Positions 1 to 31,309 of a DNA stretch of 32,500 bases are shown here, piece by piece (the first letter of the stretch is position 1; every line of letters starts with the position of its first letter). Where the stretch lies: contig JAABTH010000019.1 in the NCBI GenBank assembly GCA_011389985.1, forward strand, positions 1 to 32,500, read 5' to 3'. The stretch is from Bacillota bacterium (GTDB lineage Bacteria > Bacillota > Dethiobacteria > DTU022). The notes under the pieces were generated by a model. The model saw only the letters and a list, made by a program, of their open reading frames with translations. It was not told where the DNA came from and ran no database searches. The translations under genes were made by a program, and so were the position numbers.

Positions 1-333
1 CGGTTTCTCCCCCGCTCTTACGGCTTCATCAAAGCCGGCTTGAAGCACCAGGCCGGCATCAAAATCATGCTGTTCCACCTGCTCGAGCAGCAGATCTACG
101 TCATTAATTATAGTTACCTCAAAGCCTTCAAGTTCCTGCGCTGAGGCAGTAATACTCGAATCACCCATGTCAACGATGGCCAGGCGCGGTTTCGGTTCAA
201 AGAGTGAACCGAATGCAAACTGAAACAGCAGTGTCAAGACAAAGGGCAGAACCAGGGCCCAGATAAAGAAAGGTTTACGCGGCCCTACTGAAAAATCTTT
301 AAATAAAACGCTTAAGACTCGTTTGATGCTCAT
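1..333 (-). CDS. ABC-2 type transporter permease, N-terminal part (cut by window edge)
   Basis: About 111 N-terminal codons are visible, starting MSIKRVLSVLFKDFSVGPRK. A hydrophobic segment follows at roughly residues 22-42, then a soluble stretch (RLAIVDMGDSSI...) that resembles the extracytoplasmic domain of ABC-2 permeases. Its ATG overlaps the TGA of the upstream permease (ATGA, 4 bases), so the two are probably translationally coupled and form a heterodimeric membrane channel. The ATPase is the first gene of the same operon. The substrate cannot be read from the sequence; NatB/YhaP-like or drug/lipid exporters are possible. The family assignment rests on context and the partial topology. 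Confidence 0.75.
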   Translation of the reverse strand, partial: MSIKRVLSVLFKDFSVGPRKPFFIWALVLPFVLTLLFQFAFGSLFEPKPRLAIVDMGDSSITASAQELEGFEVTIINDVDLLLEQVEQHDFDAGLVLQAGFDEAVRAGEKP

Positions 334-1574
334 AATGTCGCCACCTTTCTCCTCAACACGAACAAACCGGCTCCATAAATAACTACAACCCAGAGCAAGG
401 CATAGAGCAGCGAATTTATTGAATCAGCCCAGAGGGCATTGTGAACTGTAACGTCATACAGCAGTCTGACGATTGGATAGCTGGGCAGTACTTTAACCCA
501 GGCGGCAACCGAGCCGGGAAAAAGCACAGCAAATGAAGGAATCATCAGCGGCACCAGGAAAAGCATACTGAACATAAGCTGGCCGATAAAATCTTTGCCG
601 GCAGCGCCCACAAGCATGGCTACCGCTGTAAAGAGCAGTGCCCCGAGAATGCTAGTTACGAGCAGCAGTGACCAGTTATCGGCAGTAAATGCCCTGACCA
701 GGGCAAGGACAATAAGCGCCTGTCCCAGGGCGAGAGCTGTGCCAAAAATAGTTTTGGCCAGTAAAAAATGTCCGACTCGCATCGGTGTAACAAGCAGGGC
801 AGTAACTGTGCGCTGTAGAACTTCATTTGATATTAGTGAAGCGAGGGCAAAGGTTTCCATCATCAGCATAAAAAAGGCAATTAACGGTCTCATCCTGGTT
901 TGCATGGAGATTTGAGCGCCCATTCGATCGACACCCAAAATAATTGTTTCTTCTTCGGGCATTTGAACGGGCAGTTCTCTCCCGGCCAGCTGATAGGTCA
1001 TTTCCCGGATAAAACCTTCCATTGCGCCTCGTAGTTCTTCGGGAACAGCGGCATCGGCATATACTGTTACTTTCGGTTTTTCACCACGTACCGCTTCACT
1101 TAAAAAAGAACCCGGAAAAGCGATACCGATCTGCAGGTTAACCCTGGATGAGTCATCCGGTTTTTTCTGATCGCCTTCAGAATCATGAAATACAAACCGG
1201 CCTTGATCAGTTTTATATACTTCCAGTTCACCACTGACAACCTGCTTCAAGAGTTCTTCATTTTCAAGCTCAACCAGCATCAGACCTTCGTCTTCAAAAG
1301 CGGTTTCAAGTTCATCCAGCTGTTCTAGCGCTTCGGCCGGAAAGCCAATGGCCAAAAGATCTTTCTGCCCTTCACTGAAAAGCGTTGACAGTGAAGGGCT
1401 GACAGCAAAGGTGATCTCTTCTTCAACTTTATCCGGGACCAGCCAAAAAATTGTGACGAAAACCGCCAGGCCGAGTATTGTCAGAAAAAGGTAGATCAGG
1501 TTACGGCTGTATACCTGTGCATCTTTCTTTAATATGGCGATTAATATTTCGCCGTTTGATATGTGCTTATTCAT
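330..1574 (-). CDS. ABC-2 type transporter permease (NatB-like)
   Basis: A 414-residue membrane protein. One N-terminal transmembrane helix lies at about residues 25-46. A large hydrophilic extracytoplasmic domain of about 180 residues follows, containing an acidic region and FPGSFLSEAVRGEKP. The C-terminal half has five or six hydrophobic helices, ending in the cytoplasmic tail LRRKVATL. This is the usual plan of ABC-2 permeases (ABC2_membrane_3/NatB type). The start codon sits inside the last codons of the ATPase gene (4-base overlap), and the stop overlaps the next permease. The three genes therefore form a tight operon in which this protein is one half of the translocation channel. The direction is presumably export; the substrate is unknown. 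Confidence 0.85.
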   Translation of the reverse strand: MNKHISNGEILIAILKKDAQVYSRNLIYLFLTILGLAVFVTIFWLVPDKVEEEITFAVSPSLSTLFSEGQKDLLAIGFPAEALEQLDELETAFEDEGLMLVELENEELLKQVVSGELEVYKTDQGRFVFHDSEGDQKKPDDSSRVNLQIGIAFPGSFLSEAVRGEKPKVTVYADAAVPEELRGAMEGFIREMTYQLAGRELPVQMPEEETIILGVDRMGAQISMQTRMRPLIAFFMLMMETFALASLISNEVLQRTVTALLVTPMRVGHFLLAKTIFGTALALGQALIVLALVRAFTADNWSLLLVTSILGALLFTAVAMLVGAAGKDFIGQLMFSMLFLVPLMIPSFAVLFPGSVAAWVKVLPSYPIVRLLYDVTVHNALWADSINSLLYALLWVVVIYGAGLFVLRRKVATL

Positions 1575-2806
1575 CCCGCCAGCCCCCTGCCGGTTAAGCG
1601 GATAAAGATTTTTTCGAGGGTGGCTTCTTCAGTATGTATGGTCATCAGATCGGGTGAAGCTGCCAGTTCACTCAGGCGGGCAGAAGACTTTTCTCCATCA
1701 AGGGGCAGTTCTTCTTCTTTTACGCTACCTCCGTCACGCAGCCTGACCAGCACTGATCTTTTACCATATTTCAGTTTGAGATTTTCAGCTGTATCAAGGG
1801 CAACGATCTCACCTTCATTGATAAAGGCGACCCGATCTGACAGCTCGTCAGCTTCAAACATATTATGGGTGGTAAGCAGCACTGCTGCTCCCCTTTCCGC
1901 CTCTTCCTTGATTGTTTTCCTGATTGCTGAAGCGGTAACCGGATCTAGCCCGTCTGTCGGTTCATCGAGAAAGAGCACACTGGGTTTGTTGATAAAGGCC
2001 CGGGCAACCATCAGCCTCTGCCGCATTCCTTTGGAATAATGTGAGACGCGATCCCTGGCCCGGTCGGCAAGCCCGACCCGCTTAAGCGCTTCCAGTGATT
2101 CAGGATTGCGAATACCAAAGAGTGAAGCGAAAAAGTTAAGGTTTTCGAGAGCAGTCATTTCCAGGTAAAGATTTTTTTCTTCAAAAGTAACTCCAATTTG
2201 GGCCTGCATTTCGGGATCGTCTCTGCCAATATCGTGACCGAGAATTTGCGCGCTACCGCCTTTTAGTGGTAATTGGCCGGTTAACACTTTAATTGTTGTT
2301 GATTTACCGGCGCCATTGGGACCGAGAAAACCAAGGATTTCCCCCGGGTAGACCTCAAAATTGATATCTTTTACAGCCTGAAGTTTGCCATACCAGTGAC
2401 TTAAATTATTAACATAGATGGCAGGCTCGCCTCTTCTGCCTTTACCAGAGGCGCTGTCTGCTGATGATTTTTTATATTCTCTGCCCTGCTGAAGTTCATC
2501 CAGCGGTTTTACCAGCTTACCCGTTTCCCATAACCCTTTTATTATTTTACCGTCGGGTTTCATAAAGCTGCCATAACCATTTCTTTTTCCCTTAACAAAT
2601 TCGCCCTTATATTTAGCTCCGCTGGCATATATGATCAGCCCCTTGCCTTGAGGCATACCTTCTTCCCATTCTCCGTCATATTTAGTACCATCCGGCATTA
2701 TAAAACGGCCCTGCCCATGAGGCTTGCTGTTCTTTAATTCTCCAGCGTACTTACCACCTTTCCAGGATATACTCTGCTGCGCCGGAGTTTTTTCATATTC
2801 AGCCAT
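1571..2806 (-). CDS. ABC transporter ATP-binding protein with N-terminal MORN repeats
   Basis: A 411-residue fusion. Residues about 20-98 hold three to four MORN repeats (YxGExxxGxxxGxGxxxxxxG pattern, e.g. YAGELKNSKPHGQGRFIMPD and YDGEWEEGMPQGKGL). A polar linker (about 100-126) leads into a complete ABC ATPase: Walker A GPNGAGKST at 162-170, signature YSKGM at 257-261 (the usual variant in NatA/CcmA-type ATPases), Walker B VLFLDEP with catalytic E282, and H-loop His314. It should power the two permeases that follow. The ATG has GAGGTG seven bases upstream. The MORN extension is unusual for this family, which normally begins right at the ATPase domain. It may anchor or position the ATPase, but that is inference. 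Confidence 0.9.
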   Translation of the reverse strand: MAEYEKTPAQQSISWKGGKYAGELKNSKPHGQGRFIMPDGTKYDGEWEEGMPQGKGLIIYASGAKYKGEFVKGKRNGYGSFMKPDGKIIKGLWETGKLVKPLDELQQGREYKKSSADSASGKGRRGEPAIYVNNLSHWYGKLQAVKDINFEVYPGEILGFLGPNGAGKSTTIKVLTGQLPLKGGSAQILGHDIGRDDPEMQAQIGVTFEEKNLYLEMTALENLNFFASLFGIRNPESLEALKRVGLADRARDRVSHYSKGMRQRLMVARAFINKPSVLFLDEPTDGLDPVTASAIRKTIKEEAERGAAVLLTTHNMFEADELSDRVAFINEGEIVALDTAENLKLKYGKRSVLVRLRDGGSVKEEELPLDGEKSSARLSELAASPDLMTIHTEEATLEKIFIRLTGRGLAG

Positions 2807-6592: not shown

Positions 6593-7576
6593 ATGAATAT
6601 CAGAAGCCTGCGAAATCCGGATTTGTATCACGGCCGAATCGGCAAAACATATTTTGAAGGATGGTACTTTAAGCTCGTAGATGCTGACATGAGAAATTCA
6701 TTTGCCTTGATTCCGGGGGTTTTCTTCAGTGCTGATCAGCTCTATTCCCATGCATTTATCCAGATAGTCGACGGCATGGAAAGAACATACCGTTATGAAC
6801 GCTTTCGGGCAGCAAGTTTTACCGCTGACAGACACATTTTCTCATTGGCTGTCGAAAAGAACAGTTTCGGTCGGGAAGGTCTTGATTTGAAAATGACAGG
6901 CGAAGACGCCAATCTGAAAGGACAAATAAGTTTTCTGAACCATAAAAGATGGCCGGACAGTTTTATTAACCCGGGTAGTATGGGTTTCTATAACTATATT
7001 CTGAAGATGCAATGCTACAGCCAGGTTTGTTCGATGGATTTTGATCTCAAAGGCAAGCTTGAATATAACGGGCGGATAATTGATTTTAGCGGAGGACGCG
7101 GCTATATCGAAAAAAACTGGGGCTCCGCTTTTCCCTATTCATGGGTATGGGTTCAATGCAACAACTTTTCCGGTAAAAGAGCGTCGCTCAGCTGTTCACT
7201 GGCCCATATTCCTCTTCTTTTTACCAGTTTCAGGGGCTTTTTAATCGGACTTTATGTTGGCGATATTTTTTATGAATTTTCCACGATTAACCAAAGCAGG
7301 GTTGAAGTAGTACAAACCGGTACAGATGTGGCTTTACAGGTTGAAAATAAAGACCACTTGCTGGTAATTGAGTGTAAAACTGAAAGCAATAACTTTATTC
7401 CGCTAAACGGACCGCGTGGAGGTGAAATGATTCCGTTAGTGCAGGAAAACCTTCAGGGCAATGTTTATGTTGAACTTACGGAAAAATCAACTGGGAAAAT
7501 TCTTTTTGCCGATAGCGGTAAATGCGCCGGAGTTGAGTACGGCGGCGAACAGATGCTGGTTTTAGATGATGCTTAA
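6593..7576 (+). CDS. Tocopherol cyclase-family (AttH-like) protein
   Basis: A 327-residue protein. The N-terminal RNPDLYHG...YFEGWYFKLVD and central GYIEKNWGSAFP..WVWVQCNNF blocks are characteristic of the tocopherol cyclase family (Pfam Tocopherol_cycl), a two-domain lipocalin-like fold. Plant and cyanobacterial members cyclise phytyl quinols. Bacterial homologues in non-photosynthetic anaerobes have no known reaction and may bind or modify a hydrophobic ligand. There is no signal peptide, so it is probably cytoplasmic. The start ATG has GAGGTG upstream. It is followed co-directionally by a DUF401 membrane protein about 140 bases away. The family assignment is good; the specific function is unknown. 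Confidence 0.8.
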   Translation: MNIRSLRNPDLYHGRIGKTYFEGWYFKLVDADMRNSFALIPGVFFSADQLYSHAFIQIVDGMERTYRYERFRAASFTADRHIFSLAVEKNSFGREGLDLKMTGEDANLKGQISFLNHKRWPDSFINPGSMGFYNYILKMQCYSQVCSMDFDLKGKLEYNGRIIDFSGGRGYIEKNWGSAFPYSWVWVQCNNFSGKRASLSCSLAHIPLLFTSFRGFLIGLYVGDIFYEFSTINQSRVEVVQTGTDVALQVENKDHLLVIECKTESNNFIPLNGPRGGEMIPLVQENLQGNVYVELTEKSTGKILFADSGKCAGVEYGGEQMLVLDDA

Positions 7577-18217: not shown

Positions 18218-19299
18218 AAATATTTACCCGGAGTCTGATGTATTTTCTTTTTAATTTCAAGGGAAAGCAGCGTTGCGACTGTTTCTGCAGCGCCTGCGCC
18301 GGTTAGTTGAATGATCCTGTCAATATGCATCGGTTCATAAGGAATAACTTCTAGGACAGCCTTTTCGCTTGCAGACAGTACTTCTCCAGTGATTTCAATT
18401 GTAAGCTGCTCTTCCGGTTCAATATATAACTCTTCAAGAATATCTTCAACCGACTCAACCAGCCTGGCGCCGTCTTTGAGCAAGCGGTGGCAACCACGAC
18501 TGTATGGGCTTCCGATATTACCGGGCACAGCAAAGACTTCACGATTTTGCTCCAAGGCATAATTTGCAGTAATTAAAGCCCCACTCTTCGCTGTCGCCTC
18601 AACTACAACGGTACCAAGGGACAGTCCACTGATAATGCGGTTTCGCTGTGGAAAGTTAAATGAGACTGGCTCGGTATAGAGTGAAAACTCACTGATAACC
18701 GCACCATCTGCAGCGATCTGTTCCATCAGATCCTGGTTGCGGGGAGGATAGCAGCGGTCAAGGCCGCAGCCCAACACAGCAACGGTATAACCTCTGTTTT
18801 GTAATGCACCGTTGTGCGCAGCCGTATCGACACCGAGAGCCATGCCACTAATGACCCCGACCCCTGCTGAGGCGAGTTCACCGGCTATGCGGCCGGCAAC
18901 TTCGCGCCCATAGAAAGTACAACGGCGACTTCCAACAACTGCGACAGAAGGATTGTTTATTTTTTCAAGACTGCCCCTGTAATAGAGAATCGGCGGTGGG
19001 TAAGGAATTTGACTGAGCAGCTTGGGATATTCCGGGGACCCCGGTGAAATAGATTTAATTTTATTTTTTCTGAGTAAATCCCATTCATGGCGGGGATCTA
19101 TGGAGGATTTTTCTTGTATAAGTTTATCAAGATGCCCTTTTAGATCTACTGCAGATTGATATTGATCTTTCGAAGCGTTCCACGCTGCCTCTGCTGATCC
19201 GAAATGATCAGTCAGGGCGGAAATTCTTCTTGCACCGAGAACAGATATTCTATTTAAAGCGTTCAGATAAATAAGTTCACTTCCGGACTCACGACTCAT
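18205..19299 (-). CDS. dprA: DNA processing protein DprA
   Basis: About 364 residues. An N-terminal helical region (ISVLGARRISALTDHFGSAE) is followed by the Rossmann-fold core with VAVVGSRRCTFYGREVA, SAGVGVISGMALGVDTAAH, AVLGCGLDRCYPPRN, SEFSLYTEPVSFNFPQRNRI and GALITANYALEQNREVFAVP, and a C-terminal winged-helix segment. DprA loads RecA on incoming single-stranded DNA during transformation. The ATG is chosen because it overlaps the TGA of the preceding M42 gene (ATGA), with GGAGGA upstream. The frame also opens 30 bases earlier but without a sensible site. Confidence 0.95.
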   Translation of the reverse strand: MSRESGSELIYLNALNRISVLGARRISALTDHFGSAEAAWNASKDQYQSAVDLKGHLDKLIQEKSSIDPRHEWDLLRKNKIKSISPGSPEYPKLLSQIPYPPPILYYRGSLEKINNPSVAVVGSRRCTFYGREVAGRIAGELASAGVGVISGMALGVDTAAHNGALQNRGYTVAVLGCGLDRCYPPRNQDLMEQIAADGAVISEFSLYTEPVSFNFPQRNRIISGLSLGTVVVEATAKSGALITANYALEQNREVFAVPGNIGSPYSRGCHRLLKDGARLVESVEDILEELYIEPEEQLTIEITGEVLSASEKAVLEVIPYEPMHIDRIIQLTGAGAAETVATLLSLEIKKKIHQTPGKYFCRT

Positions 19300-20318
19300 C
19301 TTAAATTTATCTCCTCCATTTGCGGCCAACTGCTTAACAACATTTTTTCAAGGAGCAAAACGGCATAATCAAGATCACTTTTATCAACAATTTCTGATGC
19401 TGTGTGAACATAACGGCAGGGAATGGAAAGTGCTCCCGAGGGAACTCCTTCGCGGGAGAGATGTATCGCTCCGGCATCAGTTCCTCCGCGGGTCAATACC
19501 TCATACTGGAATGGAATTTTGTTTTTCTCTGCCACATCAACCATAAAGCGGCGGATCAGAGGATGACAGAGCACCGAGTTATCTTTAACTTTTATCGCCG
19601 GCCCTTTGCCAAGACTTACTTCCATTGTTGCCGCTTTAGGAGTATCACCAACCGTGGTAACATCTACTGCCAGGCCAAAATCGGGCTCATAGCGGTAAGC
19701 GGCTGTTTTAGCTCCTCTAAGACCAAGTTCTTCCTGTACTGAGAAAACAAAGCAGACTTCGTGGGGAAGTTCTGCGGGCAGCCGGTTGATTACCTCAACC
19801 AAAATGGCACAACCGGCACGATCGTCCATTGCTTTGGCCAGGTAACGGCCTTCCCGCTGTTCCTTAAATGGTTGGTCAAGGCAGGCGAGGTCACCAATTT
19901 TGACAAGCTTTTTGGCTGTTTCTAAATCATCTGCGCCAATATCAAGATATATTTTGGGCCAGTCCAGCTCTTTCAGCTCTTTTAGTTTTTCATGGTATAC
20001 AGTACCGATTAATTCATTGTTAAAGCGCAAACGCTGCCCGATAAGCAAGCGGGGAGAGATACCGCCTACCGGCGCTATTCGTAAAAAACCGTTTTCATCA
20101 ATATGGGTGACGATGACACCGATTTCATCCATGTGGGCGGAAACCATCACTTTCAATTTCTGCCCCTTCCTGATCGCAAAGAGGTTGCCCAGGTTATCTT
20201 CAAAAATTTGGTCAACTTGATCATTTAACATATCCCTGATCATTGAGCGCACATTTTCTTCCTCACCTGAGGGTCCATAAGCTTCTGTAAGTTTCTTAAG
20301 AGTATCTCTTATAGCCAT
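19296..20318 (-). CDS. M42 family metallopeptidase (third of three tandem copies)
   Basis: 340 residues, YpuA/FrvX/PepA-like deblocking aminopeptidase family. Metal ligands are seen in VSAHMDEIGV (His), AMDDRAGCAILVEV (Asp), VQEELGLRGAKTAAY (Glu-Glu) and CRYVHTASEIVDKSDL (His), and in the Asp of LAVDVTTVGDTP. The family forms dodecameric cytoplasmic peptidases with two metal ions. It overlaps dprA by four bases and lies 14 bases after the second copy. Which residues it prefers at the substrate N-terminus cannot be read from sequence. Confidence 0.9.
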   Translation of the reverse strand: MAIRDTLKKLTEAYGPSGEEENVRSMIRDMLNDQVDQIFEDNLGNLFAIRKGQKLKVMVSAHMDEIGVIVTHIDENGFLRIAPVGGISPRLLIGQRLRFNNELIGTVYHEKLKELKELDWPKIYLDIGADDLETAKKLVKIGDLACLDQPFKEQREGRYLAKAMDDRAGCAILVEVINRLPAELPHEVCFVFSVQEELGLRGAKTAAYRYEPDFGLAVDVTTVGDTPKAATMEVSLGKGPAIKVKDNSVLCHPLIRRFMVDVAEKNKIPFQYEVLTRGGTDAGAIHLSREGVPSGALSIPCRYVHTASEIVDKSDLDYAVLLLEKMLLSSWPQMEEINLR

Positions 20319-20332
20319 ATGATCACGCCTTT

Positions 20333-21334
20333 CTACTGCCTCTGCTCAAGCCAGGCCCTGACAAGACCGAGAGTGGCATTTAAATCACTTTCTTTCATTA
20401 CACTATAAGGCGAATGAATATACCGGCAGGGTACGGCTAAAATTGCAGTATCTACACCCCCACGCGATGAGGCTATAACACCGCCTTCTGTGCCAGCACC
20501 GGTAAAGTGTCTATATTGGTAAGGTAACGATGCTTTTTCAGCAACCTCAGCCAGTTCTTCACGCAGCTTGCGGCTGACCATAATGGTGCGGTCCATTATG
20601 CTGATTGCAGGACCTTTCCCTAAATTTGTTCCTGCAGCCTCTTCATCTGTTTCGGGTGTATCAGAAGCCGCAGTGGCTTCAACAACGAGGGCAACATTTG
20701 GCTCTATTGTGTATGCAGCTACAGCTGCTCCACGTGTACCAACTTCTTCCTGTACTGTAAAGGCGGCATTAAATGCAAGGCCATTATTTTCCATAAGCAG
20801 CCTGAGAAGGATCAGGCACCCGGTCCGATCATCAAAAGCTTTGCCGCGGTAATAACCATCGCCGATTTCAGTGCAAAAAGAATCAAAAGCGGCATAATCG
20901 CCGACCGAGATATACTGTTTAGCTTCATCACTGTTTTTAAAACCGGCATCGATGCAGAGCGATTCTTCATCGAAAGGTTTTTTCTGTTCATCCTTTTTCT
21001 GTAAATGCACCGGTTTGACGCCAATCACACCATCTATTCCAGCTGTGCCAATACGCACTCTTTTACCGGGTAGAATACGGCCGTCTATTCCACCAACAGG
21101 GCTAAATTTTAAAAAGCCGTTTTTTTCAACAGCCATGATCATCAACCCTACTTCATCCATGTGCGCGGAGAGCATAATAGTGCCATTTTTGCTCTTACCC
21201 TTACTTACCAGCAGATTACCCATTGTATCGACACGGGTTTCTACAGCAGTGCCTACCAATTTTTCAAGCAGGTATTTGCGAACATTTTCTTCATTGCCCG
21301 AAACGCCTCGTAGATCGCAGAGTTCAGCTAGCAC
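20333..21334 (-). CDS. M42 family metallopeptidase (second of three tandem copies)
   Basis: 333 residues with the same motifs as its neighbours: LSAHMDEVGLMI, AFDDRTGCLILLRL, VQEEVGTRGAAVAAY, VEATAASDTPETDEE and CRYIHSPYSVMKESDL. The GTG start lies inside the last codons of the first copy (7-base overlap), with GAGGAG eight bases upstream, so the two are translationally coupled. Where its neighbours have the Asp-Val-Thr metal-site triad it reads VVEATAASDTP, a Glu-for-Asp change that may alter metal use or specificity. Confidence 0.9.
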   Translation of the reverse strand: MLAELCDLRGVSGNEENVRKYLLEKLVGTAVETRVDTMGNLLVSKGKSKNGTIMLSAHMDEVGLMIMAVEKNGFLKFSPVGGIDGRILPGKRVRIGTAGIDGVIGVKPVHLQKKDEQKKPFDEESLCIDAGFKNSDEAKQYISVGDYAAFDSFCTEIGDGYYRGKAFDDRTGCLILLRLLMENNGLAFNAAFTVQEEVGTRGAAVAAYTIEPNVALVVEATAASDTPETDEEAAGTNLGKGPAISIMDRTIMVSRKLREELAEVAEKASLPYQYRHFTGAGTEGGVIASSRGGVDTAILAVPCRYIHSPYSVMKESDLNATLGLVRAWLEQRQ

Positions 21335-22398
21335 TTTTTCAGCTCCTCGAGGTAAGAATTTGTCACTTTAGCGGCCAGACGAGCCAGCAGTCTGCTGCCT
21401 GTAACAAGATCTTCCAGACAGAGCATTTCTACTGTTGTATGCATGTAACGCAATGGAATTGAAAGCAGGGCTGTAGGAATACCTTCACGAGACACCTGAA
21501 AAGCCCAGGCATCAGTACCGCTGTGTGCAGGGATAGGCTCAACCTGGTAAGACAGGTTAAATTCCTGTGCAATTTGCTGCATGGCAAAACTCAAGGAAGG
21601 GTGAAAATTAGGGCCGACGCCCAGGGCAGGCCCTGCGCCAAGTTTATAAGTTTTTTTATCGTCGGTTCCCGGCGTATCACCATGAGTGACATCTACGGCA
21701 ACAGCAAGATTTGGTTTCAAACCGTATGCTGCTGTTACTGCTCCTCTGAGACCTACTTCTTCCTGCAGGGAAGCAATAAAACAGATATCCGCCTGATGGC
21801 GTAGACCGGCCAGTTCGGCAGCACAGAAAATAAGTGCGGCAATTCCGGCCCGATTATCGAGCGCTTTACCGGTAATCATTTTTCGATTCTTAAGAAGTAT
21901 GGGCTTCTGCCCAAATGAAATAGTGTCTCCAACTCCGGTTATTGTTTTCAGGGTATCTGCGTCATAACCTGTATCAATAAAAAGCTTCTCTACAGGTATG
22001 GATTTTTCCCGGTCTTGCATAGATAAGTGGTGAGGCGCAGTTGCGCCTATTACCCCTTCTATTGCTTTTTTACCATGCACCACTACTCGCTGACCGGGTA
22101 AAACACGGGGATCCAGACCGCCAAGAGGGGTAAAACGTAAAAAACCAGCCGGTTCAATTTTTGTCACCATGGCTCCTATTTCATCTACGTGAGCAACCAG
22201 GGCCACGGTTATTTTTTCAGCGGCAGACGCTTCACCCTTTTTTAGGGCAATCAGGTTGCCGAAGCGGTCAAGTTTAACCTCATCTGTGTATAGATCGAAG
22301 TAGCTGCGGACCGCTTCTAGAGCAGCTGTTTCATTACCTGAAACACCTGCTACTGATGAAAGCTCAAGGAGGATATCAATCAGGTTTTCTTTGTTCAA
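21328..22398 (-). CDS. M42 family metallopeptidase (first of three tandem copies)
   Basis: 356 residues: VAHVDEIGAMVTKI, ALDNRAGIAALIFCA, LQEEVGLRGAVTAAYGL, AVDVTHGDTPGTDDK and LRYMHTTVEMLCLEDL cover the five metal-binding positions of M42 aminopeptidases. The start is a TTG with AAAGGAG eleven bases upstream. It follows cimA by about 37 bases, making it the second gene of the cimA-M42-M42-M42-dprA run. The three copies differ in length and sequence enough to be old duplications with possibly different substrate preferences. Confidence 0.9.
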   Translation of the reverse strand: MNKENLIDILLELSSVAGVSGNETAALEAVRSYFDLYTDEVKLDRFGNLIALKKGEASAAEKITVALVAHVDEIGAMVTKIEPAGFLRFTPLGGLDPRVLPGQRVVVHGKKAIEGVIGATAPHHLSMQDREKSIPVEKLFIDTGYDADTLKTITGVGDTISFGQKPILLKNRKMITGKALDNRAGIAALIFCAAELAGLRHQADICFIASLQEEVGLRGAVTAAYGLKPNLAVAVDVTHGDTPGTDDKKTYKLGAGPALGVGPNFHPSLSFAMQQIAQEFNLSYQVEPIPAHSGTDAWAFQVSREGIPTALLSIPLRYMHTTVEMLCLEDLVTGSRLLARLAAKVTNSYLEELKKC

Positions 22399-29746: not shown

Positions 29747-30628
29747 CTATTCTCCGCTCCTGATTAAAACAGCGCTGCTGTCCATTTCCTTCCAGGGGTC
29801 TTCTTTCTGCGCGAGGCGCCTGAAAACATTTTTCAAATTATACTGCTGCGCACTAACAACCTTTCCCCGCTCTATTTCATCCCAATCAAGGGGAACGGCC
29901 ACAGGAGCGTCTTTAAGAGGTCTTATGGCATAAGGGGCCACTGCTGTCTGTCCATAAGCATTTCTGGAAATATCAAGATATAAACGGTTCCCCCGTTTAT
30001 CTTTTCGCTGTTCGGTTGTAAATTCTTCCGGATTATGCGAAGCAACCTGATCAGCAGTATGCCGGGCAAATTCCCGGACTGTATCAAAATCTGGGCTGCC
30101 TTTTAGTGGGACAACCAGATGAAATCCCCGGGAACCTGTAGTCATCACAAAGGAGGGTAAATCGTATGATTGCAGAATTTTTCGCAAAGCCAGGGCTCCA
30201 TGGCAGGCAATTTTAAAGCCTTTTGTCCGGGGAGGGTCAAGATCAAATATCAGGCGATCAGGATTGTTGAGTTTTCCCTTTCGGCTGAGCCAAATATGGG
30301 GAGTTATACAACCCTGATTGGCCAGATAAACCAGATCTGCCGTCTTGGTGCAAATAATGCGGGTAGCATTGCCTCCCTCCTTTTTTTCTGCATTAACCCT
30401 TTCAAACCAATCCGGGAAATAATCGGGCATTTCCTGTTGGTAGAAACCGCTTTTATTGATCCCATCGGGAAACCGATGCATGGTAATCGGGCGATCATAA
30501 ATCAGGGGAATCATTGTACTTCCGATCCTCTGATAGTAATCAATCAGTTCACCTTTTGTTATATTAGCTTCCGGAAATATAACCTTGTCCCGGTTAGAAA
30601 TCTCTATGTCATAAGAATCTACCTTCAT
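29747..30628 (-). CDS. Stand-alone LigD-type polymerase domain (archaeo-eukaryotic primase fold)
   Basis: 293 residues covering only the polymerase domain of LigD. The start YDIEISNRDKVIFPEANITKGELIDYY is the family beginning. Catalytic aspartates lie in IFDLDPP, then VMTTGSRGFHLVVPL (nucleotide-binding) and RGNRLYLDISRNAYGQTAVAPYAIRP. It adds nucleotides, often ribonucleotides, during non-homologous end joining. The start ATG has GGGAG upstream. The 3'-phosphoesterase gene lies about 80 bases upstream in the same direction. The ATP-dependent ligase and Ku are not in the window, so the system is split or completed elsewhere. Confidence 0.9.
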   Translation of the reverse strand: MKVDSYDIEISNRDKVIFPEANITKGELIDYYQRIGSTMIPLIYDRPITMHRFPDGINKSGFYQQEMPDYFPDWFERVNAEKKEGGNATRIICTKTADLVYLANQGCITPHIWLSRKGKLNNPDRLIFDLDPPRTKGFKIACHGALALRKILQSYDLPSFVMTTGSRGFHLVVPLKGSPDFDTVREFARHTADQVASHNPEEFTTEQRKDKRGNRLYLDISRNAYGQTAVAPYAIRPLKDAPVAVPLDWDEIERGKVVSAQQYNLKNVFRRLAQKEDPWKEMDSSAVLIRSGE

Positions 30629-30706: not shown

Positions 30707-31309
30707 TCAGTCCACTGTTTTATCCTGTTCGATTTCTTGCAGTGTTCTTCCTGACAGGACCGATTTGTTTTCTGTGCTGGTGGGATTTCGTCGAGCATCA
30801 GCTCCTTGATCATCCATCTTGATTAAAAGCCATCGTTCATTATTTCCGCTGTCTGTTTTGATCAGGGCATAACCGCCTTTAATCTTTTCGCCCTTTAACC
30901 AAACTTCAATTTTACCGTCATCGTATGCCTGCTTCATCGAAACACCGTCATCTTCTTTTTCGGCTCGCAAATTACGGTAATAGCCATTATCCCAGACCAT
31001 CACGGTCCCGGCACCATATTCATCTTCCGGGATAACTCCTTCAAAATTTGCATAGTCAAGAGGGTGGTCTTCGGTAGGTATTGCCATCCGGCGCTCCGAA
31101 GGATCAGTAGAAGGACCTTTGGGTACAGCCCAGGATATCAGGACCCCCTCTATTTCAAGCCGTAAGTCATAGTGCAGGTTTGAGGCACTATGCTTTTGAA
31201 TAACAAATATTTTATCCCGACCTGATTCTTGTTTTTTTCCGGTGGGCTCCGGCGTTTCGGAAAAATTTCGCTTGCTTGTATAATCTTTAAGCAGTTCTTC
31301 TTTAGAAAT
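30707..31309 (-). CDS. Stand-alone LigD-type 3'-phosphoesterase domain with a non-canonical start
   Basis: About 200 residues. The phosphoesterase signatures are complete: FVIQKHSASNLHYDLRLEI, VLISWAVPKGPS, EDHPLDYANFEGVIPEDEYG and TVMVWDNGYY, with catalytic His and Asp in HYDLRLE and EDHPLDY. It removes 3'-phosphate or ribonucleotide ends before ligation. The domain begins about 45 residues upstream of the first in-frame ATG (31085-31087), which would delete the catalytic histidines. No ATG, GTG or TTG occurs between the domain start and the upstream stop. ATT codons follow AAGGGG (5-base spacing) and are the best candidates, with CTG at 31292-31294 as an alternative. A C-terminal extension is charged and low-complexity. 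Confidence 0.8.
   Translation of the reverse strand: MSKEELLKDYTSKRNFSETPEPTGKKQESGRDKIFVIQKHSASNLHYDLRLEIEGVLISWAVPKGPSTDPSERRMAIPTEDHPLDYANFEGVIPEDEYGAGTVMVWDNGYYRNLRAEKEDDGVSMKQAYDDGKIEVWLKGEKIKGGYALIKTDSGNNERWLLIKMDDQGADARRNPTSTENKSVLSGRTLQEIEQDKTVD

What the first reader, a model, noticed from the sequence alone, without database searches (positions are those of the whole stretch)
1571..2806. MORN repeats fused to an ABC exporter ATPase
The first 100 residues are three to four MORN repeats and the rest is a complete NatA-type ABC ATPase with intact Walker A, signature, Walker B and H-loop. The operon also encodes two ABC-2 permeases. MORN repeats in front of an ABC-2 ATPase are not a standard arrangement. 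They could tether the ATPase to the membrane or to a partner, making a regulated exporter. That role is inference.
Basis: partly seen in the sequence, partly recalled or inferred. Interest (0 to 1): 0.55.

Follow-up and report, generated by a model that had tools for sequence, protein, structure and literature searches.

The report
MORN-tagged ATPase of a bacterial exporter
An otherwise ordinary bacterial membrane exporter carries an extra, separately folding MORN-repeat domain on its ATP-burning subunit; the same kind of domain recurs beside or on other exporters and once on a light-sensing protein in this bacterial family, which hints at a shared docking part whose partner is unknown.

Summary
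Confirmed, on the minus strand: window 2806..1571 encodes a 411-residue protein with four MORN-type hairpins (residues ~12-101), a disordered ~25-residue linker and a complete ABC-2 exporter ATPase. It is no assembly error: 17 of 43 genomes of the same family carry it, from several sequencing projects, and two ABC-2 permeases follow in 58 of 59 loci with room.

The exporter itself is ordinary: MORN-less orthologs occur in many phyla. MORN was gained once in this lineage and lost once. A related module was fused, apparently independently, to a second exporter ATPase only 33% identical, stands alone beside a third exporter, and was once transplanted onto a heliorhodopsin. It is under purifying selection, its linker much less so. 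In the window's genus its synonymous history differs from the rest of its gene, as if swapped.

Best reading: a modular cytosolic docking domain on exporters, probably protein-protein; the partner is unknown and the function inferred. No fixed domain contact is predicted. MORN-heliorhodopsins and unspecified further MORN fusions in this class are published (PMC8612252), so this is a new variant of a known kind.

The parts
1571..2806 (-). MORN-ABC gene (411 aa): MORN module plus linker plus ABC-2 exporter ATPase
2504..2773 (-). MORN module, residues about 12-101, four hairpins
   Evidence: Pfam PF02493; model strands and pLDDT about 90-95
2423..2503 (-). linker, residues 102-128; residues 104-122 have pLDDT under 50; dN/dS about 0.3-0.6 where it could be computed
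1574..2422 (-). ABC ATPase domain, residues 129-411
   Evidence: PF00005; alignment of 52
330..1574 (-). ABC-2 permease 1 (414 aa), overlaps the ATPase gene by 4 bases
   Evidence: ABC2_membrane_3 E 4e-20
1..333 (-). ABC-2 permease 2, first 111 codons only, cut by the contig end
   Evidence: sequence, translated; intact ortholog L028:8490-9539

Best explanation
A conventional ABC-2 exporter (one ATPase gene, two different permeases, presumably an ATPase dimer) whose ATPase bears a separately folded four-repeat MORN sheet on a flexible linker. The sheet is a cytosolic docking module that brings the exporter to a protein partner, or clusters exporters with each other, and so sets where or when export happens; it is not needed for transport itself. 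Shown: the fusion, its single gain and one loss, selection on the module, recurrence of related modules at two other exporters and one heliorhodopsin, and the lack of a predicted fixed contact with the ATPase. Inferred: docking, its partner, and any effect on activity. The substrate is unknown.
For: Related 'exporter-type' modules occur on ABC1 (17 of 43 family genomes), on a second ATPase ABC2 (8 of 43), and as a stand-alone 103-aa gene after an ATPase-permease pair in 3 of the 14 genomes with that permease. ABC1 and ABC2 ATPase cores are 32.5% identical but their modules 58%, and ABC2 has MORN-less relatives at 62-66% in other families, so the fusions look independent. Exporter-type modules separate from the usual heliorhodopsin, membrane-protein and lipoprotein MORNs in a 43-row tree (support 90/86). 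Selection: module dN/dS 0.06-0.16 in the 6 of 7 pairs where it could be computed, linker 0.27-0.57 in 6 of 7, ATPase 0.04-0.06 in 7 of 7 (synonymous sites near saturation). The model folds both domains well with a disordered linker. MORN1 proteins of known structure form dimers (PMC7725318, passages).
Against: No partner was found. The invariant module residues are mostly the generic glycine/tyrosine/tryptophan MORN positions, so no specific binding patch is shown. The module is dispensable: of five MORN-less close orthologs in the class four lie in family f1 (G017, G018, G019, G024), and L040 (=G018) sits inside the MORN clade. The stand-alone gene is adjacent in only 3 of 14, 76 bases after the permease, so co-transcription is not shown. 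The split of module types is only moderately supported (90/86).
Confidence: 0.5

Rival explanations
1. Membrane tether: the MORN sheet binds inner-leaflet lipids and holds the ATPase at, or steers the exporter to, a membrane region.
For: The name and older work on plant PIP kinases and junctophilins, as cited in PMC8612252 (passages). All fusion partners of the exporter-type module here are membrane systems.
Against: The ATPase is already held by two permeases. TbMORN1 showed no binding to membranes or vesicles (PMC7725318, abstract). A stand-alone 103-aa module without a membrane segment is kept.
Confidence: 0.2
2. Passenger domain: MORN repeats spread easily in this MORN-rich lineage and the fusion has little function.
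For: The genome holds 35 MORN repeats at seven loci. The module was lost in L040 and evolves faster than the ATPase.
Against: dN/dS well below 1 and below the linker's. The frame is open in 15 of 15 aligned orthologs. Independent recurrence on two exporter ATPases.
Confidence: 0.17
3. Light coupling: MORN-heliorhodopsin and MORN-ABC contact each other through their MORN sheets, so light controls export.
For: MORN-HeR occurs in 10 of 17 genomes with MORN-ABC1 and 3 of 26 without (Fisher p 0.0018; relatedness not corrected). One HeR (L173) carries a module of exporter type, 80% identical to an ABC1 module. PMC8612252 proposes interaction among MORN proteins.
Against: Near-complete genomes carry MORN-ABC without any HeR match: G003 (97%), G007 (99%), G028 (95%), G013 (93%). 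HeR modules are usually of the other type.
Confidence: 0.1
4. Assembly or annotation artefact.
For: Nearly all genomes are draft metagenome assemblies and the window ends at a contig end.
Against: 17 of 43 family genomes share it, in records of several naming series; identity runs through both domains.
Confidence: 0.01

Closest known systems
MORN-heliorhodopsin fusions of Dethiobacteria (Bulzu et al. 2021, PMC8612252; passages read)
   Same: Same group of haloalkaliphilic Syntrophomonadaceae/Dethiobacteria assemblies; N-terminal cytosolic MORN repeats on a membrane system; the paper also mentions further MORN-protein fusions in these genomes.
   Different: Partner is a rhodopsin, not an exporter ATPase. 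'ABC transporter' and 'ATPase' have 0 occurrences in the main text; the list of other fusions (Table S15) was not readable here.
ABC-2 exporter ATPases of the DrrA/ABCA/NosF kind
   Same: ATPase fold and motifs; closest solved chains 4yer, 1vpl, NosF and ABCA proteins; ABC2_membrane_3 permeases.
   Different: None of these matches covers the MORN part; DrrA score 253.9 is below the cut-off 312.45.
MORN1 proteins of trypanosomes and apicomplexans (6t4r, 6t4d and others)
   Same: Best match of the module among solved structures by sequence (E 3e-35); MORN beta sheet.
   Different: Proteins made of MORN repeats only, more repeats, eukaryotic, no ATPase.

Membership tests
ABC-2 exporter ATPase | Walker A, signature, Walker B, H-loop and the ABC_tran profile | tested here: met
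   PF00005 E 7.1e-33; residues conserved in 52 sequences. Motif names recalled.
ABC-2 exporter ATPase | adjacent ABC-2 permease genes | tested here: met
   both permeases in 58 of 59 loci with at least 2600 bp downstream
DrrA (TIGR01188) | score above the curated cut-off | tested here: not met
   253.9 against 312.45 bits
NatAB sodium exporter | sodium export | not testable with these tools
MORN repeat | PF02493 above cut-off and beta-hairpin sheet | tested here: met
   65.1 bits against 22.5; model
MORN repeat | membrane or partner binding | not testable with these tools
   no binding assay
MORN-heliorhodopsin | heliorhodopsin domain | tested here: not met
   no PF18761 in P0001; it is met in L113 and L173

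The most novel reading that the evidence does not exclude
Dethiobacteria-like bacteria use a family of swappable cytosolic MORN modules as a docking code: exporters and heliorhodopsin sensors wear modules of one kin so that they gather on one scaffold, and swapping modules rewires which sensor governs which exporter. The transplanted module in L173 and the synonymous-history break in the window's own gene are traces of such rewiring.
Probability: 0.1. Interest if true: 0.75.

Novelty: new variant of a known kind. Interest (0 to 1): 0.45.

Why it matters
MORN repeats are common, but their function in bacteria is little studied (recalled; the paper searches listed little). A module that has been put on two distantly related exporter ATPases, kept as a separate gene beside a third and moved onto a rhodopsin gives natural comparisons (fused, split, lost, swapped) that make its role testable. 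If it docks exporters to a partner, it is a way of controlling ABC export after the protein is made.

Tried and rejected
Assembly error: rejected. Fixed MORN-ATPase packing: not supported; disordered linker and pTM 0.62. Heliorhodopsin as obligatory partner: rejected by genomes with MORN-ABC and no HeR. One fusion followed by duplication of the whole gene: disfavoured, because ABC2 has closer MORN-less kin than ABC1. A conserved flanking regulator: none general; an HTH gene lies upstream in 4 of the 14 MORN loci and in L118, not in the window. Two search rows that ran into MORN-side residues with stops inside (G030:C61, G042:C21) were fetched and are ordinary ABC genes without MORN. Dropped rows: the first module tree failed in display and had badly trimmed rows; L112 was dropped as too short, L178 was left out and L197 removed as a duplicate of L173, and a script pattern had missed the HeR loci L183 and L192, so 10 of the 12 usual-type MORN-HeRs are in that tree. 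In the ATPase tree 5 of 80 loci were dropped for lack of the Walker motif searched for. In one search, 5 of the 17 MORN-less loci given were missed by the script. Limits: one search scored 4 candidates per genome and ten, so weak fusions elsewhere may be missed; one search used only residues 1-180. Paper searches listed no report of a MORN-ABC fusion as far as titles and abstract starts show; beyond the three papers opened nothing was read; supplementary files could not be read.

Full report
What is there. Window 2806..1571 on the minus strand encodes a 411-residue protein. Residues about 12-101 are MORN repeats (PF02493, 65.1 bits, three stretches over threshold) and 129-411 an ABC ATPase (PF00005, E 7.1e-33). 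The gene overlaps permease 1 (1574..330) by four bases; permease 2 starts at 333 and is cut by the contig end. One search identifies the intact ortholog of permease 2 as ABC2_membrane_3.

Structure. A model from 52 aligned sequences has mean pLDDT 85, MORN part about 90-95, residues 104-122 under 50, pTM 0.62. It predicts a four-hairpin MORN sheet and a normal ATPase joined by a flexible linker; no placement of one against the other can be claimed. Foldseek's best matches are ABC ATPases (TM_1403, TM0544, NosF, ABCA). By sequence the module is nearest to MORN1 structures.

How widespread. Of 43 family (f1) genomes, 17 have MORN-ABC1: 14 matched over essentially the full length, G013 and G023 with longer linkers, and G021 cut by a contig end. 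Four f1 genomes and one of f4 have the close ortholog without MORN. No fusion was seen outside f1 among 97 genomes of the class, 398 of the phylum or 346 around an Actinomycetota locus, within the limits told under Tried and rejected. In public GTDB genomes 14 of 80 loci carry MORN, all from Syntrophomonadaceae or Bacillota/Firmicutes assemblies; MORN-less orthologs come from records titled Actinomycetota, Fermentibacteria, Myxococcales, Spirochaetales, Chloroflexota and others.

History. In a 77-row ATPase tree 15 MORN rows plus MORN-less L040 form one set (100/98); the label needs two changes, best read as one gain and one loss. Both permeases follow in 58 of 59 loci with at least 2600 bp downstream, the exception being archaeal L107. 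Of the 14 MORN loci, 12 show both, L034 shows permease 1 before its contig ends, and L031 ends at the ATPase.

The module elsewhere. The own genome has 35 MORN repeats at seven loci. Three involve exporters: the window gene; a 413-aa MORN-ABC2 with a 266-aa ABC-2 permease; and a 103-aa stand-alone MORN protein following ATPase ABC3 and permease 3. MORN-ABC2 occurs in 8 of 43 family genomes. ABC1 and ABC2 ATPase parts are 32.5% identical, their modules 58%; ABC2 has 62-66% identical MORN-less relatives in families f6-f8. So the module was joined to two exporters separately, or moved from one to the other. The stand-alone gene lies beside permease 3 in 3 of 14 genomes with that permease (G000, G001, G015).

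Heliorhodopsin. One of the seven loci is a MORN-heliorhodopsin (L113; PF18761 E 7.5e-101). MORN-length HeR frames occur in 13 of 43 genomes. In G063 the HeR (L173) carries an exporter-type module, 80% identical to the ABC1 module of G004. DNA similarity to that locus is 82% over 349 bp, covering the module and 38 bases before the start codon and nothing further, while the HeR core is 86% identical to the MORN-less HeR of G018. In the module tree L173 sits among ABC1 modules (99/95 for the five-row set). I read this as a domain transplant between exporter and rhodopsin genes, seen in one draft genome.

Selection and swapping. Module dN/dS is 0.06-0.16 (6 of 7 pairs computable), linker 0.27-0.57 (6 of 7), ATPase 0.04-0.06 (7 of 7). 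Between the window and its genus relative G001 the module has pS 0.80 +/- 0.05 against 0.37 for the ATPase and 0.32 for permease 1, whereas the stand-alone protein (0.45) and the HeR module (0.37) match their neighbours (0.42-0.48 and 0.40); the ABC2 module differs less (0.77 against 0.63). I read this as replacement of the module in one lineage; no donor was found, and other pairs show smaller or no differences, so it is suggestive only.

Literature. PMC8612252 (passages read) reports 36 MORN-HeRs in haloalkaline Syntrophomonadaceae/Dethiobacteria, suggests roles in dimerisation or contact among MORN proteins, and mentions multiple other MORN fusions in these genomes. That the window's organism is a Dethiobacteria relative is inferred from this and from record titles. 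PMC7725318 (abstract and passages) finds no membrane binding by TbMORN1.

Verdict. A real, conserved, lineage-specific fusion; the exporter is ordinary, the MORN part a recurrent module under selection. Its role as a docking domain is inference.

Noticed in passing
L113:4530-5708(+) (own genome C44:52529-53707): MORN-heliorhodopsin in the window's own genome, 392 aa, with an apparent coiled-coil stretch between MORN and rhodopsin (by eye).
   Followed up: partly
L173:2131-3264(-), L196:1489-2316(-): HeR with a transplanted exporter-type MORN module; relative to G018 about 3.8 kb extra DNA lies between the HeR core and a neighbouring SDR-like gene.
   Followed up: partly
L109:5027-6550(+): 507-aa protein made of MORN repeats throughout, just after a gene that looks like tatC (tatC by eye).
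   Followed up: no
L110:3864-4721(+): MORN protein with a lipoprotein-like signal, so MORN repeats are probably also outside the cell.
   Followed up: no
L112:4260-4934(+): MORN repeats fused to DUF4282 (PF14110 E 3e-17), a membrane protein kept in relatives.
   Followed up: no
window 29747-30628(-) and 30707-31087(-): Two adjacent genes that look like the polymerase and phosphoesterase parts of a split LigD (by eye).
   Followed up: no
window 19296-22398(-): Three tandem, related M42-type aminopeptidase-like genes (by eye).
   Followed up: no
window 6593-7576(+): Tocopherol-cyclase-like protein (PF14249 E 2.6e-32) next to a DUF401 membrane protein.
   Followed up: no
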